Source: Bacteroidia bacterium (lineage in GTDB: Bacteria; Bacteroidota; Bacteroidia; UKL13-3). From it: a DNA stretch of 64,000 nucleotides. The notes beneath the pieces are model-generated. The model saw only the letters and a program-made list of their open reading frames with translations, did no database searches and was not told the origin of the DNA. Both the position numbers and the translations under genes were made by a program. Below, in pieces: positions 56,492-63,185 of this stretch. Numbering within the stretch: the first letter of the stretch is position 1; every line of letters starts with the position of its first letter. The stretch covers positions 1 through 64,000 of the forward strand of contig JAGVLJ010000009.1 of assembly GCA_020049855.1 (NCBI GenBank). Direction: 5' to 3'.

Positions 56492-57690
56492 GTCGTATTG
56501 AAGATATCAGGCTGGCACATGTGAAGCGCATATTGGAGGCTTACCATTTTGACATTCCGTTACACCATTTTCTCAAAAATTACTTTCGCGAAAACAAACA
56601 GATAGGTTCTAAAGACCGTAAGCTGCTCAGGCAATACACCTATTATTGGTTTCGGTTGGGTAAAGCCTGCGCCCTCGATGAGCCTGAGTTGCGTTTGGCA
56701 AAAGCTGTATTTTTAAACGAAACCAAAACTTCTCCTTTTTTCGATTACCTCTCGTTGCGCTGCCGGTGGACACCTGAAGTTGCCGCCTGGACTTATTCTA
56801 CCCGGGAAAAGTTAACATTTCTGAATATTTCTTTTTCCGAAATTTTCCCCTGGATGGATGAATTGTGTGACGGGCTGAATCAATCAAACTATATAGCAGG
56901 TTTTTTTTCACAACCGCGTTTGTGGTTGCGGGCACGTAGGGGGAAGGAGTCATTACTCGAGCAACAATTAGCGCAACAACAACTGCCTTTTGAACGCAAT
57001 GCAGAGTTACCTCAGGCATATGCTTTACCAAACGGATGTAATCCACAGGTGGAAGGTTTAGCGGAGGTACATGATTTAAGTTCGCAGCAGGCAACCGGTT
57101 TCTTTAAGCCGGCCTCCGGAATCAATGTATGGGATTGCTGCGCTGCTTCAGGCGGAAAGAGTTTGGCCCTTATGGATAGGCACCCGGGAATTAATTTGTA
57201 TGCTTCGGACGTGCGCGAACGAATACTCGAAAACCTGCAACAGCGTTTTGCCATTAACGGAATTAAAACCTATGCAACGGCTGCACTTGATTTAAACAGA
57301 CAGCATTCACGTATTTCTTTTACGCAATGGCCCGATAAAAAACAGATAACCGTTTCTCCTCATTTTTTTGATTTAATACTGGTAGATGCTCCCTGCAGCG
57401 GTTCGGGTACATGGGCCAGAACCCCCGAGCAATTACAGCAAATGAACGAACAAACCATTGCTCATTATGTTGCTTTGCAACGCAGCATTGTACAAAACGC
57501 GTTGCCCTTTTTAAAACCAAACGGACAATTGGTGTACAGTACCTGTTCGGTGTTTGCCAAAGAAAATGAAACGCAATCCGCTTTTTTTGCTGAACATTTC
57601 CACCTTAAATCAATTACAACGCAACTTATTCAGGGAACCCATCATGGGGCAGATACCTTATTTGTAGCTGTGTGCCTAAAGCCCCAATAA
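56488..57690 (+). CDS. RsmB/NOP family RNA (cytosine-5) methyltransferase
   Basis: A 400-residue enzyme with GTG start overlapping the upstream stop. An N-terminal helical part (to about 140) precedes the methyltransferase core: VWDCCAASGGKSLALMDRHPG (SAM motif), LILVDAPCSGSGTWARTPEQL with the release cysteine, and LVYSTCSVFAKENE with the catalytic Thr-Cys. It makes m5C in rRNA or tRNA; which position is not predictable. It sits in the guaA operon by spacing. Confidence 0.88.
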   Translation: MSRIEDIRLAHVKRILEAYHFDIPLHHFLKNYFRENKQIGSKDRKLLRQYTYYWFRLGKACALDEPELRLAKAVFLNETKTSPFFDYLSLRCRWTPEVAAWTYSTREKLTFLNISFSEIFPWMDELCDGLNQSNYIAGFFSQPRLWLRARRGKESLLEQQLAQQQLPFERNAELPQAYALPNGCNPQVEGLAEVHDLSSQQATGFFKPASGINVWDCCAASGGKSLALMDRHPGINLYASDVRERILENLQQRFAINGIKTYATAALDLNRQHSRISFTQWPDKKQITVSPHFFDLILVDAPCSGSGTWARTPEQLQQMNEQTIAHYVALQRSIVQNALPFLKPNGQLVYSTCSVFAKENETQSAFFAEHFHLKSITTQLIQGTHHGADTLFVAVCLKPQ

Positions 57691-57691
57691 C

Positions 57692-58665
57692 AAAACTGCG
57701 TATGAGTATAACTTTTCCGTGTTTGTTTTAAACAGTACGGCTCTCGTAATACTTTTGGTTGTAGCTATACGAAGTAAATACTTATACTACGATAAAGCCC
57801 TACTAGAACGCCCAGGTACACAAAATACATTTTCTACACACGAACAAAGTTCAAATGAGAATAAGGTTATAGCCATTTCTGGCGAAGTAAGAAAGGAGTT
57901 CAGTGTTATCATTGTAAATAGAATTGCGGATTTAGAAGTAATCGGCAGAGGACAATAGTTGCCATTATTTTTTACGAAGAAAACAACTCCATTCAAAAGG
58001 GAATGTTTGATACAGCAAACAATCAGAAATACGTTCGTAGAGATGCTATCAGTGATTTCATCTTAGAAAGAGCAAAAAAGCAGTACGGTAAGAATGTAAC
58101 CAAAGAAGATGTATTTTACTATGTGTATGGCTTTTTGCATAGCCCGGAGTACCGGGAAACTTTTGCCAATGATTTAAAGAAAATATTGCCCCGTTTGTCG
58201 TTAGTGGAGGAGGTAAAAGATTTTTGGGCATTTAGCAAGGCGGGAAGAAAATTAGCCGAACTGCATTTGAATTATGAAACCGTTGCACACTATGATGGGG
58301 TAGCTATTAAAGAGCCAGAAAAAATTTATATGATGCTACCTTAAGAATATTATAGGGTAGATAAAATGCGTTTCCCAAAAAAAGGGCAAACGGATACCAT
58401 CATTTACACTAATCGGACTACTATTTCGAACATTCCTGAAACAGCGTATGAATATATAGTGAACGGGAAAAGTGCCATTGAATGGATTATGGAGCGGTAT
58501 CAGATAACCATAAACAAGGAAAGTGGCATCAAAAACGACCCGAATGATTGGGCAACATAAGTTGGGAACCCGCGATATATTTTAGATTTGCTGTTAAGCA
58601 TCATCAATGTAAGTGCTCAGACAGTAAATATTGTAGCCGCCCTGCCTAAGGTTAAGTTTGACTGA
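57692..58665 (+). pseudogene. Relic of a type ISP restriction-modification/helicase gene (C-terminal part)
   Basis: Only the last 320 or so codons survive. In one frame, SKYLYYDKALLERPGTQNTF and VIAISGEVRKEFSVIIVNRI end at a TAG at 57955-57957; a +1 shift continues with IFYEENNSIQKGMFDTANNQ, RRDAISDFILERAKKQYG, VTKEDVFYYVYGFLHSPEYR and DFWAFSKAGRKLAELHLNYE. Stops at 58342 and 58558 interrupt, but the same frame goes on with DTIIYTNRTTISNIPETAYE, YIVNGKSAIEWIMERYQ, GIKNDPNDWAT and VGNPRYILDLLLSIINVS. This is the C-terminal target-recognition region of type ISP enzymes and related predicted helicases, so the gene is dead and 5'-deleted. Confidence 0.75.
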
Positions 58666-58990: not shown

Positions 58991-59034
58991 ATTAACTTTA
59001 AACTAGAAACTCTCAAACTTTAAACTTCAACTCC
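58991..59034. repeat. Degenerate short repeat, AACTTTAAAC-like
   Basis: Three imperfect copies of an AAACTTTAAACT-like unit in tandem (attaactttaaact, gaaactctcaaac, tttaaacttcaact). The composition resembles the tail of the intergenic repeat at 43031-43062. Confidence 0.4.
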
Positions 59035-59040
59035 CGTGGC

Positions 59041-59086
59041 TTATCCACAATTGCGCAAAAGCAATCCACAAATAACTTGTGTAAAA
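59041..59086. other. Cluster of DnaA-box-like sites
   Basis: TTATCCACA at 59041-59049 is the perfect DnaA box. TGTGTAAAA at 59078-59086 reads TTTTACACA on the minus strand, matching TTWTNCACA. CAATCCACA at 59062-59070 is a two-mismatch site 21 bp from the first. This could be part of a replication origin, a titration site or a DnaA-regulated promoter for the downstream parAB region; the window alone cannot tell. Confidence 0.4.
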
Positions 59087-59299
59087 GGATAGAAAAGCCT
59101 GATTGTGTTTAGGGTTTTGCGGGCTAAGAAATACACATTTTATATTTGGACAGTCATCTTTCAGTTAGTTAAGGCCTGAACAGCTGCAAGCGGCAAGTTT
59201 TGAGTTTGTTACTGTGTTGATAGAATGTACTTACCTACTATGGCTGAAAGTAGTAATTTTACCCTTCTGTTTAAAGCAAGATAGCAGGGAGTAAATTGC

Positions 59300-59980
59300 A
59301 TGAAGGTAAAGTATTTAGGTCATTCGTGTTTTCAGGTAGAGGCAGGGGGAGCAACTCTTTTGTTCGATCCCTTTATTACGCCCAATCAACTGGCATCGTC
59401 TATTGATATGAAACAGGTAAAGGCTGATTATATATTTATTTCGCACGCCCATCAAGACCATATGGCCGATGCCTTGCAACTTGCCAAACAGAACAACAGC
59501 ACCATGGTGGCCAACTGGGAAATATGTTCCTGGTTTAATACGCAGGGCTGGCACAAAACCCATCCCATGAATACGGGAGGCAAATGGACATTTGACTGGG
59601 GAGAGGTTAAATTCACCAATGCCATTCATTCCAGTTCATTTGGTGATGGCTGTGACGGGGGCAATCCGCAGGGATTTATTATTAAGGCTGACGGCAAAAC
59701 ATTTTATTATGCAGGAGATACCTCACTGCATATGGATATGCAACTGATAGGGAAGTACAACAAACCCGATTTTGCCTTTTTGCCTGTGGGCAGCAATTTT
59801 ACCATGAGTTATGAAGATGCCGTGATTGCAGCTGAGTTTATCCAATGTAATACAATCATCGGGATGCATTTTGATACATTTCCGTATATTGTAATCAATC
59901 ATGAGCAGGTGCAACAGGCTTTTACTGCTGCCGGAAAAACCATTAACCTGATGGAAATAGGAGCCACATTAGACATTTAA
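59300..59980 (+). CDS. Metal-dependent MBL-fold hydrolase (UPF0173 type)
   Basis: A 226-residue metallo-beta-lactamase: VKYLGHSCFQVEAGGATLLFDPFI, the zinc motif FISHAHQDHMADA, later ligands in YYAGDTSLHMDM and GMHFDTFPYI. This is the UPF0173 group, whose substrate is unknown. ATG at 59300. It ends 28 bp before parA and may share its transcript. Confidence 0.87.
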   Translation: MKVKYLGHSCFQVEAGGATLLFDPFITPNQLASSIDMKQVKADYIFISHAHQDHMADALQLAKQNNSTMVANWEICSWFNTQGWHKTHPMNTGGKWTFDWGEVKFTNAIHSSSFGDGCDGGNPQGFIIKADGKTFYYAGDTSLHMDMQLIGKYNKPDFAFLPVGSNFTMSYEDAVIAAEFIQCNTIIGMHFDTFPYIVINHEQVQQAFTAAGKTINLMEIGATLDI

Positions 59981-60008: not shown

Positions 60009-60812
60009 ATGGGAAAAATTATTGCAATTGCAAATCAAAAAGGTGGGGTAGGCAAAACCACCACAGCCATTAACTTGGCCGCAAGCTTAGCCGTATTGGA
60101 ATACAAAACATTATTGGTAGATGCCGACCCTCAGGCCAATTCCACATCGGGTACCGGATTCGACCCCAAGAATGTAAAAATAGGTATTTACGATACATTG
60201 ATAAATGATACCGAAGCACGGGATGTAATTTTGAAAACTGAAACCGATTTTTTGGATTTACTTCCGGCCAGTATTGATTTGGTGGGAGCCGAGATTGAAC
60301 TTATTGACAGGCCAAACCGCGAACGGATGATGAAAGCAACATTGGAAAAGGTGCGCGGAGATTATGATTTTATCATTATTGATTGTTCTCCATCACTGGG
60401 AATTATTACCACCAATGCGCTTACCGCTGCCGATTCGGTAATCATTCCGGTGCAGTGCGAATATTTTGCGCTAGAAGGATTGGGTAAATTACTTAATACT
60501 ATCAAAATTGTACAAAGCAATATCAATCAAAATTTGCAGATTGAGGGTATTTTACTAACCATGTACGATTCACGTTTGCGACTGAGTAATCAGGTGGTGG
60601 AAGAGGTAAAAATGCATTTTCAGCAACTGGTGTTTGATACCATTATTCAGCGTAATACCAAGCTAAGCGAAGCACCAAGTTTTGGGGTGCCGGTGATACA
60701 GCATGATGCAGCCAGCCGTGGCACGGTAAATTATTTAAACCTTGCTCGTGAATTGCTCACCAAAAACGGACTCACCAAAATGAGTGCAGTGGACAATGTA
60801 AGTAATAACTAA
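60009..60812 (+). CDS. parA: Chromosome partitioning protein ParA (Soj)
   Basis: A 267-residue deviant Walker ATPase that moves ParB-bound origin regions. KIIAIANQKGGVGKTTTAIN is the deviant Walker A motif with the signature lysine; LLVDADPQANSTSG, FIIIDCSPSLG and VIIPVQCEYFALEGLGKLL follow. Length and lack of an N-terminal DNA-binding domain fit chromosomal ParA. ATG at 60009 is preferred over one seven codons upstream. It is followed by parB after 73 bp containing a hairpin. Confidence 0.95.
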   Translation: MGKIIAIANQKGGVGKTTTAINLAASLAVLEYKTLLVDADPQANSTSGTGFDPKNVKIGIYDTLINDTEARDVILKTETDFLDLLPASIDLVGAEIELIDRPNRERMMKATLEKVRGDYDFIIIDCSPSLGIITTNALTAADSVIIPVQCEYFALEGLGKLLNTIKIVQSNINQNLQIEGILLTMYDSRLRLSNQVVEEVKMHFQQLVFDTIIQRNTKLSEAPSFGVPVIQHDAASRGTVNYLNLARELLTKNGLTKMSAVDNVSNN

Positions 60813-60885: not shown

Positions 60886-61806
60886 ATGACAGTAACAAAA
60901 AAAGGCGGACTGGGTAAAGGATTAGCAGCCCTGTTGCAAAATGCAGAAACAGACATAACCACTACACGCGACTCGAAACCTGTGGGTACTGTAAGCGAAA
61001 TAGAGATCAGTCAGATTGAGGCTAACCCGTTTCAACCTCGTACCGATTTTGATAAGCAAGCATTGCAGGAACTTTCGGCATCAATTAAAGTTCACGGACT
61101 GATTCAACCCATTACTGTGCGTAAAATGGGATATGATAAATACCAGATTATATCGGGTGAACGCAGAACTCGTGCCGCCATTGAAGCCGGATTAAAAACC
61201 CTACCTGCATACATCAGGTTGGCCAATGATCAGGAAATGCTGGAAATGGCCCTGATTGAAAACATACAGCGCCAAGATTTAAATGCCATTGAAGTAGCTT
61301 TAAGTTACAAGCGCCTTATTGATGAATGCACCATGACTCAGGAGCAGGTGGCTGAGCGTGTGGGTAAAGAACGAAGTACCATTACCAATTACCTTCGCTT
61401 GCTTAAATTACCGGTCGATATTCAGGCTGCTATACGCGATGGGCTGTTAAGTATGGGACATGCCCGTGCGATTATTGGCATAGAGAATGAAGCCGAGCAA
61501 CTCCGTATTTTTAATGAGATACGCGAAGGAAATTTGTCGGTGCGTATGGCCGAGGAACTGGCTCGCTTGCAAAAGGAACCGGATAAGGAAACCAAGCCTG
61601 TTTCATCCGTTGCCAACAAAAAAGGGAAACACAGTGACGGCCTTTTGCTTAATGATTATACCGTTTATCAGCGGGTATTAAGTGACCGTTTCAACGCTAA
61701 AGTTACCTTTAAAGCCAACGAAAAAGGGAAAGGGAATATCCAAATTCAATTTGAAGATCTGGATGAACTACAAAGACTGATTGATATGCTGGAAGAATCA
61801 AAATAA
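60886..61806 (+). CDS. parB: Chromosome partitioning protein ParB
   Basis: A 306-residue CTPase that loads at parS. KGGLGKGLAALL is the N-terminal ParA-contacting segment; EANPFQPRTDFD and SGERRTRAAIEAGL are the CTP-binding motifs, MALIENIQRQDLNAIEVALS leads into the helix-turn-helix (MTQEQVAERVGKERSTITNYLRLLKLP), and the C-terminus holds a dimerisation helix (DELQRLIDML). No parS site was identified in the window. It is 3 bp upstream of the DUF5683 gene. Confidence 0.95.
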   Translation: MTVTKKGGLGKGLAALLQNAETDITTTRDSKPVGTVSEIEISQIEANPFQPRTDFDKQALQELSASIKVHGLIQPITVRKMGYDKYQIISGERRTRAAIEAGLKTLPAYIRLANDQEMLEMALIENIQRQDLNAIEVALSYKRLIDECTMTQEQVAERVGKERSTITNYLRLLKLPVDIQAAIRDGLLSMGHARAIIGIENEAEQLRIFNEIREGNLSVRMAEELARLQKEPDKETKPVSSVANKKGKHSDGLLLNDYTVYQRVLSDRFNAKVTFKANEKGKGNIQIQFEDLDELQRLIDMLEESK

Positions 61807-61809
61807 ATC

Positions 61810-62430
61810 TTGAAAGCGACAATCATATTTATTATTTTGTTTGGGCTAAAAACTGTATCATCTTTTGCACAACAGCCTTTCCAGGACTCAGTAATGCAAT
61901 TAAAAAACGATAGCATAGCCCCCAAGGCTCGTTTTGATCAGGGGAAAACAAATCCCCCGATCAACCCCGTTCACTCGCCCCGACTGGCTACCTGGCGATC
62001 GGTACTGATACCCGGATGGGGGCAGGTTTACAACAAAAGGTATTGGAAAATTCCTGTTATTTATGTGGGAGCTGCCGGTTTGATTTTTGGACTGACGTGG
62101 AATCATCAAAATTATAAAGAGTTTAAACAGATTTATACTTTTCTTGAAGATAAAGACAGTTCTACTGTTCCTGTTTATCAAGGAAATGTACTTGATTCAC
62201 GCTATACCAATTGGGCTGCAAGCAATCGGGATTATTTTCGTAAAAACAGAGATATGTTTGCTATTGGTTTAGGTCTTCTCTATATTCTTAATATTGTGGA
62301 TGCCAATGTAGATGCACATTTATTTGAATTCAATGTGAATGATGACTTATCTTTGAGGGTAGAACCGAAAATTTTTGCCCTGAACGGAATTGCTTATAGC
62401 GGATTTGGGGCTACACTAAATATAAAATAA
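61810..62430 (+). CDS. DUF5683 family protein
   Basis: A 206-residue protein from a TTG start. A signal peptide (IIFIILFGLKTVSSFAQQ) is followed by RLATWRSVLIPGWGQVYNKR, a membrane segment (IPVIYVGAAGLIFGLTW), a central charged region, and a second hydrophobic segment (MFAIGLGLLYILNIVDANVDAHLF). This is the DUF5683 layout; the family sits between parB and dapB in many Bacteroidota and has no known function. Confidence 0.82.
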   Translation: MKATIIFIILFGLKTVSSFAQQPFQDSVMQLKNDSIAPKARFDQGKTNPPINPVHSPRLATWRSVLIPGWGQVYNKRYWKIPVIYVGAAGLIFGLTWNHQNYKEFKQIYTFLEDKDSSTVPVYQGNVLDSRYTNWAASNRDYFRKNRDMFAIGLGLLYILNIVDANVDAHLFEFNVNDDLSLRVEPKIFALNGIAYSGFGATLNIK

Positions 62431-62432
62431 AC

Positions 62433-63185
62433 GTGAGAATAGCATTACTTGGTTACGGAAAAATGGGCAAGGCGGTTGAACGTGTTGCGGAAGCCAAAGG
62501 GCACGAAATTGTTTATAAAATTAATTTGGAGAACGCCAATAATTTTTTAGCCATTAGTTTAAAAAATGTTGATGTGGCTATCGACTTCAGTATGCCTACA
62601 TCGGCTTACGACAATATTATGAAGTGTTTTGATGCCAATGTGCCTGTGGTGGTAGGTACTACCGGATGGTATGACCAGTTTGACGAAGTAAAAAAGCGCT
62701 GCATAAAGGAGGGGCAAAGTATGATTTACTCTTCCAATTTTAGTTTGGGTGTAAATATATTTTTCAAAATTAATAAACTGCTTGCACGCTACATGGGACA
62801 ACGCAAGGACTATGATGTGATGATTGAAGAAGTACATCATACCGAAAAAAAAGATCATCCCAGCGGAACAGCACTCTCTTTGGCCAAGCAAATACTGGAA
62901 CCGAGCCAAACAAAACACAGCTGGAAGGCGAGGTTGTTTTTTGATAAAAACGAGGACGTTCCCATGCAAAGTTTGCAACCGGATGAATTATTAATTGAAT
63001 CAAAACGAATCAAGGATGTACCAGGCGACCATACGGTAATTTACAGTTCGGCCAATGACTCAATAACCATAAAGCACTCGGCTATTACCCGCAATGGATT
63101 TGCCGAGGGGGCTGTGCTGGCTGCCGAATGGATATTGGGCAAAAAGGGAATTTATACCATGGAGGATCTTTTGAAGTTAGACTGA
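62433..63185 (+). CDS. dapB: 4-hydroxy-tetrahydrodipicolinate reductase
   Basis: A 250-residue enzyme of the diaminopimelate/lysine pathway. The NAD(P) motif is GYGKMGKAVERVAEAKG, the VVVGTTGWYDQ strand and SSNFSLGVNIFFKIN follow, and the catalytic segment EVHHTEKKDHPSGTALSLA carries the conserved His-His and Lys. It feeds peptidoglycan synthesis. Start GTG, 2 bp after the DUF5683 stop. Confidence 0.95.
   Translation: MRIALLGYGKMGKAVERVAEAKGHEIVYKINLENANNFLAISLKNVDVAIDFSMPTSAYDNIMKCFDANVPVVVGTTGWYDQFDEVKKRCIKEGQSMIYSSNFSLGVNIFFKINKLLARYMGQRKDYDVMIEEVHHTEKKDHPSGTALSLAKQILEPSQTKHSWKARLFFDKNEDVPMQSLQPDELLIESKRIKDVPGDHTVIYSSANDSITIKHSAITRNGFAEGAVLAAEWILGKKGIYTMEDLLKLD

What the first reader, a model, noticed from the sequence alone, without database searches (positions are those of the whole stretch)
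59041..59086. DnaA-box cluster upstream of parA-parB
A perfect TTATCCACA, an oppositely oriented TTTTACACA (both fit TTWTNCACA) and a two-mismatch site lie within 46 bp of a 378-bp non-coding gap. ParAB genes often lie near the replication origin, so this gap is a candidate origin segment, a DnaA-titration site or a DnaA-controlled promoter.
Basis: partly seen in the sequence, partly recalled or inferred. Interest (0 to 1): 0.5.

Follow-up and report, generated by a model that had tools for sequence, protein, structure and literature searches.

The report
DnaA boxes at parAB promoter
A small cluster of likely binding sites for the replication-starting protein DnaA sits in front of the chromosome-segregation genes parA-parB; it does not look like the place where replication starts but like one of several DnaA-operated gene switches (segregation, division, gyrase, DNA building blocks) conserved in this bacterial family.

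Summary
The boxes are real: TTATCCACA at 59041-59049 (+), TTTTACACA at 59078-59086 (-), CAATCCACA between them. Counts alone are near chance, but a same-genus relative keeps both boxes at identical spacing in a gap aligned at 69% identity, and another keeps TTATCCACA plus a second ATCCACA. The origin reading is not supported. In the complete same-family genome UKL13-3 the GC-skew minimum is near 100 kb and parA lies at 762 kb; the window shows no skew switch; the assembly's only two parS-like sites lie on another contig, near its skew minimum. Best reading: a DnaA-controlled promoter. All 27 same-family par promoters read carry either TTWTCCACA (7) or a palindrome of two box-like halves, ATCMACA-N4-TGTKGAT (20). 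The same box stands upstream of gyrB (30 of 30 loci read), gyrA (22 of 30), B12-dependent ribonucleotide reductase (25 of 30, TTWTNCACA) and mraZ/dcw (25 of 29; 21 at the same spot). A variant (TTWTCMACA) is enriched at gyrB and parA in other Bacteroidia; the canonical box is not clearly so at gyrB. Binding and regulation are inferred, not shown. DnaA as a transcription factor is known; gyr, parA and Bacteroid gave no hit in the one review searched.

The parts
59041..59049 (+). DnaA box 1, perfect TTATCCACA
   Evidence: kept in G002 and G001
59062..59070 (+). degenerate box 2, CAATCCACA (G002 CTATTCACA, G001 TCATCCACA)
59078..59086 (-). DnaA box 3, TTTTACACA (TGTGTAAAA on +); identical and equally spaced in G002, not kept in G001
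59129..59137 (+). weak fourth box-like site AAATACACA (G002 AAATTCACA, G001 AAATCCACA)
   Evidence: (alignment)
59117..59148 (+). Bacteroidota-type promoter-like match TTG-N21-TATATTTG; the -7 part is not kept in G002
   Evidence: 18 such matches in the whole window, both strands; consensus recalled
59215..59229 (+). TGTTGATAGAATGTA: identical to the right half of the par palindrome and its flank in G012/G030; the left half is lost here
59300..59980 (+). metal-dependent hydrolase (PRK00685), first gene of the presumed par operon here
60009..60812 (+). parA (segregation ATPase)
60886..61806 (+). parB
61810..62430 (+). DUF5683 protein, same strand behind parB
62433..63185 (+). dapB, same strand

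Best explanation
The cluster is a cis-regulatory DnaA-binding site of the hydrolase-parA-parB operon, one member of a DnaA regulon that in this Bacteroidota family also covers gyrB, gyrA, the B12-dependent ribonucleotide reductase nrdJ and the mraZ-headed division (dcw) cluster. Shown here: the boxes, their conservation, their near-fixed positions before gyrB and mraZ, and a DnaA with a canonical C-terminal signature. Inferred: that DnaA binds them, and that the level or ATP/ADP state of DnaA thereby raises or lowers transcription of segregation, division, supercoiling and dNTP genes in step with replication initiation. In most other genera of the family the par site takes the form of two inverted box-like halves (ATCMACA-N4-TGTKGAT) 57-184 bp before the first gene.
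For: Within the genus, boxes and spacing are kept. 27 of 27 same-family par promoters read (35 family genomes had a parA match) have either the N4 palindrome with at most 2 mismatches (20; permuted half-sites average 0.61 genomes, 1 of 400 permutations reaches 20) or TTWTCCACA (the other 7). In the final sets TTWTCCACA is within 320 bp of gyrB in 30 of 30 loci (13 genera; all on the same strand, 88-107 bp before the start but for one at 134) and of gyrA in 22 of 30; TTWTNCACA is before nrdJ in 25 of 30 and mraZ in 25 of 29, in 21 of them 74-87 bp before the start. Permuted patterns average 1.2-1.3 genomes per set; at most 2 of 2000 reach the observed number for these four genes, and for gyrB, gyrA and mraZ those top patterns are TTWTCNACA and TTWTCCANA, which match the same box. 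TTWTCNACA does as well or better than the textbook pattern at gyrB 30, gyrA 26, mraZ 28 and par 17 of 27. TTWTCCACA is rare elsewhere: 11 sites in 0.98 Mb sampled of G023 against a permutation mean of about 25; the only 2 intergenic ones are in the gap before nrdJ. In g14 mraZ promoters TTATCAACA stands where others have TTATCCACA or TTTTCCACA, and in two g8 genomes the N4 palindrome itself lies upstream of mraZ. TTTTCCACA and TTATCAACA are DnaA boxes of Cyanothece oriCs bound by DnaA domain IV in vitro (PMC4674748, passages). DnaA of G000 ends with GGRDHSTVIHACQ; that this is the box-reading motif is recalled.
Against: No binding or expression data. E. coli has three DnaA boxes upstream of ftsZ that were shown not to act in ftsZ transcription (PMC8203912, passage), so boxes alone do not prove control. 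With the canonical pattern the par set is weak (7 of 27; 25 of 2000 permutations as good by genomes, 73 by genera). The palindrome halves do not keep the TT of a DnaA box, and the family motif keeps C at position 5 and frees position 6, unlike the recalled E. coli consensus. In the window the boxes lie 259 bp before the hydrolase start, farther than at gyrB or mraZ. gyrA lacks the canonical box in the loci read of g4, g5, g6 and g14; nrdJ in g7, g8 and one g3 locus. nrdJ and mraZ sites also have conserved flanks, and at mraZ the CCAC core may partly reflect the neighbouring GTGG repeats. In the G023 sample intergenic TTWTCCACA is not in excess (2; permutation mean 3.9). In other Bacteroidia families canonical TTWTNCACA is found at gyrB in only 3 of 20 (35 of 600 permutations as good). 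gldK and miaB also have boxes in G000 and do not fit the theme.
Confidence: 0.7

Rival explanations
1. The gap is (part of) the chromosomal replication origin.
For: Perfect DnaA box, a somewhat AT-richer gap (37.6% GC), parAB next door.
Against: GC skew is positive on both sides of 59 kb (19 of 20 4-kb bins). In complete G023 the minimum is near 100 kb, the maximum near 1.84 Mb and parA at 761.6 kb. parS-like sites in G000 are only at C25:105794 and 105857, near that contig's skew minimum; in G022 too parS lies near a skew minimum, on a contig other than that of parA.
Confidence: 0.04
2. A DnaA-titration or DnaA-inactivating site (like datA or DARS of E. coli) that happens to lie before parAB.
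For: Boxes lie 259 bp upstream of the first gene and form a small conserved cluster.
Against: Only two consensus boxes; in most other genera read the par element is a single two-half palindrome 57-184 bp before the first gene, which fits an operator better.
Confidence: 0.1
3. The par palindrome and boxes, and perhaps the boxes at gyrB, gyrA, nrdJ and mraZ, are operators of a transcription factor other than DnaA with a similar motif.
For: Palindromic par sites with loose positions 1-2; the best family pattern is TTWTCNACA, not TTWTNCACA; in other Bacteroidia the enriched form at gyrB is TTATCAACA (7 of 20) while the canonical pattern is not clearly enriched.
Against: At gyrB, where no locus had to be left out, the invariant block is TTWTCCACA; TTTTCCACA and TTATCAACA are DnaA boxes in Cyanothece; DnaA is present with a canonical C-terminus.
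Confidence: 0.15

Closest known systems
DnaA as transcription factor at E. coli nrdAB (review PMC8203912, passages read)
   Same: DnaA boxes before a ribonucleotide reductase operon, linked to replication
   Different: Here the enzyme is the B12-dependent class; in many genera the boxes form a pair about 57-59 bp apart; regulation untested
Caulobacter DnaA regulon: gcrA, ftsZ, mipZ, podJ (PMC8203912, passages)
   Same: DnaA-linked division and cell-cycle genes
   Different: Targets here: mraZ/dcw, parAB, gyrA, gyrB, nrdJ; no gcrA-type relay was looked for
B. subtilis DnaA at the ftsL promoter region (Goranov 2005, as cited in PMC8203912, passage)
   Same: DnaA at a division operon; in B. subtilis ftsL follows the mraZ and rsmH homologues (recalled)
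   Different: Different phylum; box here lies beside GTGG repeats that resemble MraZ sites (MraZ motif recalled)
oriC regions next to parAB (recalled: Bacillus, Pseudomonas and others)
   Same: parAB with DnaA boxes nearby
   Different: No skew minimum and no parS here

Membership tests
Chromosomal origin (oriC) | lies at the cumulative GC-skew minimum | tested here: not met
   no switch over 80 kb of C8; about 660 kb from the minimum in complete G023
Chromosomal origin (oriC) | several DnaA boxes plus an AT-rich unwinding element | tested here: inconclusive
   2 consensus boxes and 2 degenerate ones; unwinding element not tested
Chromosomal origin (oriC) | parS sites nearby (usual, not strictly defining) | tested here: not met
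   only C25:105794 and 105857 in the whole assembly, up to 1 mismatch
Chromosomal origin (oriC) | autonomous replication or highest copy number | not testable with these tools
   needs plasmid assay or read depth
DnaA-regulated promoter | consensus DnaA box upstream of the gene | tested here: met
DnaA-regulated promoter | box conserved in relatives at the same gene | tested here: met
   genus; family: canonical box in 7 of 27, box or palindrome in 27 of 27
DnaA-regulated promoter | host DnaA able to read the box | tested here: inconclusive
   canonical GGRDHSTVIHACQ C-terminus; no binding test
DnaA-regulated promoter | transcription depends on DnaA and on the box | not testable with these tools
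   experiment needed
datA/DARS-type DnaA control site | box cluster with IHF/Fis sites that changes the DnaA nucleotide state | not tested
   only few boxes seen; IHF/Fis sites not searched; function needs biochemistry

The most novel reading that the evidence does not exclude
DnaA is a conserved transcriptional hub in much of Bacteroidia: one box (TTWTCMACA) at the promoters of gyrB, gyrA, ribonucleotide reductase, the dcw division cluster and parAB lets the initiator set supercoiling, dNTP supply, division and segregation in one step, and the inverted N4 pair at par is a special two-headed DnaA operator.
Probability: 0.4. Interest if true: 0.75.

Novelty: new variant of a known kind. Interest (0 to 1): 0.6.

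Why it matters
DnaA regulons are known from a few model bacteria. A sequence-conserved set of DnaA-box promoters covering gyrase, dNTP synthesis, division and segregation would make the coupling of replication initiation to the rest of the cell cycle directly testable in Bacteroidota, a group for which the one review searched gave no hit. It also warns against calling parAB-linked DnaA boxes an origin.

Tried and rejected
Origin at the par gap: rejected by skew and parS. Exact origin: not settled. G000:C25 and G022:C7 have skew minima near their parS pairs, but G022:C2 also dips about 40 kb from nrdJ, and the densest box cluster in the origin-side pieces of G023 and on C25 is upstream of nrdJ, so that gap could itself be an origin candidate. 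No cluster of three or more boxes in 300 bp was found on C25 or in the 12 pieces of G023 around its skew minimum; the gap before nrdJ in G023 has two trios under the looser 1-mismatch count. TTATCCACA pair at C80:42099/42120 (upstream of gldK): conservation not tested. Rfam (gathering threshold) and tRNA searches of the window gave the same two tRNAs only. Palindrome search in 15 genomes (list cut off): of 10 non-par hits looked at, 8 lie inside ORFs and 2 lie before mraZ in g8. Nine of the 19 relatives searched have no perfect parS-like match, G023 among them.

Literature: no paper holding 'DnaA box', 'parAB', 'promoter' and 'Bacteroid' together, nor 'DnaA', 'Bacteroidetes', 'regulon', 'gyrB' and 'DnaA box' together, in the open-licence library. 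Searches were read as listings only. PMC8203912, PMC10532879 (nothing on DnaA control of gyr promoters in the passages shown) and PMC4674748 were read as found passages only.

Rows dropped and redone: the par set leaves out L021, L027 and L031 (other families). mraZ L220 was dropped because no start was found. In one search, 2 gyrB, 12 nrd and 10 mraZ starts failed; redid these and 6 doubtful ones (1 gyrB, 5 mraZ), giving 30, 30 and 29 loci; the permutation test rests on the smaller sets (gyrB 28, gyrA 30, nrd 18, mraZ 20, par 27) and was repeated on the full sets. The rows of the column table were chosen by the box pattern, so invariant box columns there mean something only for gyrB, where no locus fell out. 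The gyrB outgroup set is 20 of 23 loci (no start in 3). Gene starts are mechanical (first ATG or motif), so distances can be off by some codons.

Full report
Observation. Counts alone are near chance: 15 TTWTNCACA in the window against 10.85 expected, and 19 TTATCCACA in the assembly against 27 for the reversed pattern. The gap lies upstream of a metal-dependent hydrolase, parA, parB, a DUF5683 gene and dapB, all on one strand. To the left lies the remnant of a Type ISP restriction enzyme.

Conservation in the genus. The genome is a 2.91-Mb, 84-contig assembly and the window is the start of contig C8. G002 (ParA 99% identical) has TTATCCACA and TGTGTAAAA at identical spacing; G001 (ParA 91%) has TTATCCACA and TCATCCACA. 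Against G002, identity is 38/50 over 59031-59080, 11-16 of 25 per step from 59081 to 59180, 16-21 of 25 from 59181 to the gene start, and only 8-13 of 25 per step left of 59031. The conserved promoter segment therefore starts at about 59030.

Not the origin. GC skew over the first 80 kb of C8 is positive in 19 of 20 bins, with no switch at 59 kb. G023, a complete same-family genome, is CP012155.1, Bacteroidetes bacterium UKL13-3 (same length and parA coordinate). In 40 sampled stretches its cumulative skew has a minimum near 100 kb and a maximum near 1.84 Mb, while parA is at 761.6 kb. In G000 the only parS-like sites (up to 1 mismatch) are at C25:105794 and 105857, one overlapping the start of mnmG/gidA, and the cumulative skew of C25 is lowest near 110 kb. 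dnaA is on C50. Perfect parS-like sites occur in 10 of 19 relatives searched, in all 10 on a contig other than that of parA. The exact origin was not fixed.

The par element in the family. Twenty of 27 par promoters read have ATCMACA-N4-TGTKGAT with at most 2 mismatches. Permuted half-sites average 0.61 genomes, and one of 400 permutations reaches 20. The halves change together in some (CAAC..GTTG in most, CCAC..GTGG in L011, L012 and L030), while L020 and L048 are mixed. The other seven (G000, G002, G005, G006, G014, G018, G027) have TTWTCCACA. G001 has the palindrome at 2 mismatches and a TTATCCACA just beyond the 320 bp scanned. The window keeps TGTTGATAGAATGTA at 59215, identical to the right half and flank of the palindrome in G012 and G030. 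With the canonical pattern alone the par set is only mildly enriched (7 of 27; 25 of 2000 permutations as good); with TTWTCNACA it is 17 of 27.

The same box elsewhere. Of the 19 TTATCCACA in G000, 11 are inside ORFs. The rest are before par, mraZ, gyrB, gyrA, nrdJ, gldK (two) and miaB. In the family, TTWTCCACA is before gyrB in 30 of 30 loci read (32 of 34 genomes had a match) and before gyrA in 22 of 30 (33 of 34 had a match); TTWTNCACA is before nrdJ in 25 of 30 (33 of 34) and before mraZ in 25 of 29 (31 of 34). At mraZ 21 of 29 have it 74-87 bp before the start, six more have a TTWTNAACA variant in the same place, and the two g8 genomes read have the N4 palindrome. Permuted patterns average 1.2-1.3 genomes per set; 2, 2, 0 and 2 of 2000 reach the observed numbers for gyrB, gyrA, nrdJ and mraZ, and the top ones for gyrB, gyrA and mraZ are TTWTCNACA and TTWTCCANA, which match the same sites. 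At gyrB flanking columns reach at most 1.4 bits against 2.0 for eight of the nine box columns; nrdJ and mraZ have somewhat conserved flanks too. In 0.98 Mb of G023, a sample that holds the nrdJ promoter but not those of gyrB, gyrA and mraZ, TTWTCCACA occurs 11 times against a permutation mean of about 25; the two intergenic sites (permutation mean 3.9) are both in the pcrB-nrdJ gap.

Outside the family. TTWTCMACA is within 320 bp of gyrB in 11 of 20 class-level relatives (permutation mean 0.33, none of 600 as high) and of parA in 16 of 76 named Bacteroidia loci (mean 1.40, none of 600). Canonical TTWTNCACA is at gyrB in only 3 of 20 (35 of 600 as good) and at parA in 11 of 76 (4 of 600). TTATCAACA is at gyrB in 7 of 20 and at parA in 7 of 76. 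Three Bacteroidales loci (L110, L113, L117) have TTATCAACA-N11-TGTTGATAA about 100 bp before parA.

Interpretation. DnaA is the obvious reader of TTWTCCACA, and the genome's DnaA ends in GGRDHSTVIHACQ (its role is recalled). TTTTCCACA and TTATCAACA, the two variants seen here, are DnaA boxes of the Cyanothece origins, where DnaA domain IV bound them in vitro, the imperfect ones less well (PMC4674748, passages). The most economical model is a DnaA regulon in which par is one target. DnaA control of ribonucleotide reductase and of division genes is established or proposed in E. coli, Caulobacter and B. subtilis, but three boxes upstream of E. coli ftsZ were found to be idle (PMC8203912, passages). 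That review has no hit for gyr, parA or Bacteroid, and the targeted searches found no paper joining the terms. Whether DnaA activates or represses here cannot be told from sequence. The palindrome's loose positions 1-2, and a family motif that fixes position 5 and frees position 6, leave room for another regulator.

Noticed in passing
window 57690-58660: Remnant of a Type ISP restriction-modification enzyme (PF18135 match in ORF 58003-58344) left of the conserved promoter.
   Followed up: partly
L006, L009, L012, L020, L030, L042, L048 upstream of parA or the hydrolase: Half-parS sequences (GTTTCACG/GTTCCACG, some as widely spaced inverted pairs with CGTGAAAC) lie in the par promoter of several relatives; possible ParB autoregulation sites. 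Seen by eye, not tested statistically.
   Followed up: no
L232 and L236 (G000 gyrB and gyrA promoters): gyrA and gyrB share a second element, GCCTGTAAAnACnAGGGTT, between box and start; nrdJ has a related AACCCTTGT. Seen; not analysed.
   Followed up: no
G000:C25:79204-79261; G023:C1:148938-149512: The pcrB-nrdJ divergent gap holds the densest DnaA-box cluster found on C25 and in the origin-side pieces of G023; TTATNCACA and TTTTCCACA/TTATCCACA keep about 57-59 bp spacing in many genera. It could be nrdJ control or an origin candidate.
   Followed up: partly
L033 10794-10870 (G000:C25:105794-105870): Two perfect parS-like sites 63 bp apart, one overlapping the mnmG/gidA start codons; the only ones in the assembly.
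   Followed up: partly
L110, L113, L117: Bacteroidales parA promoters with TTATCAACA-N11-TGTTGATAA.
   Followed up: partly
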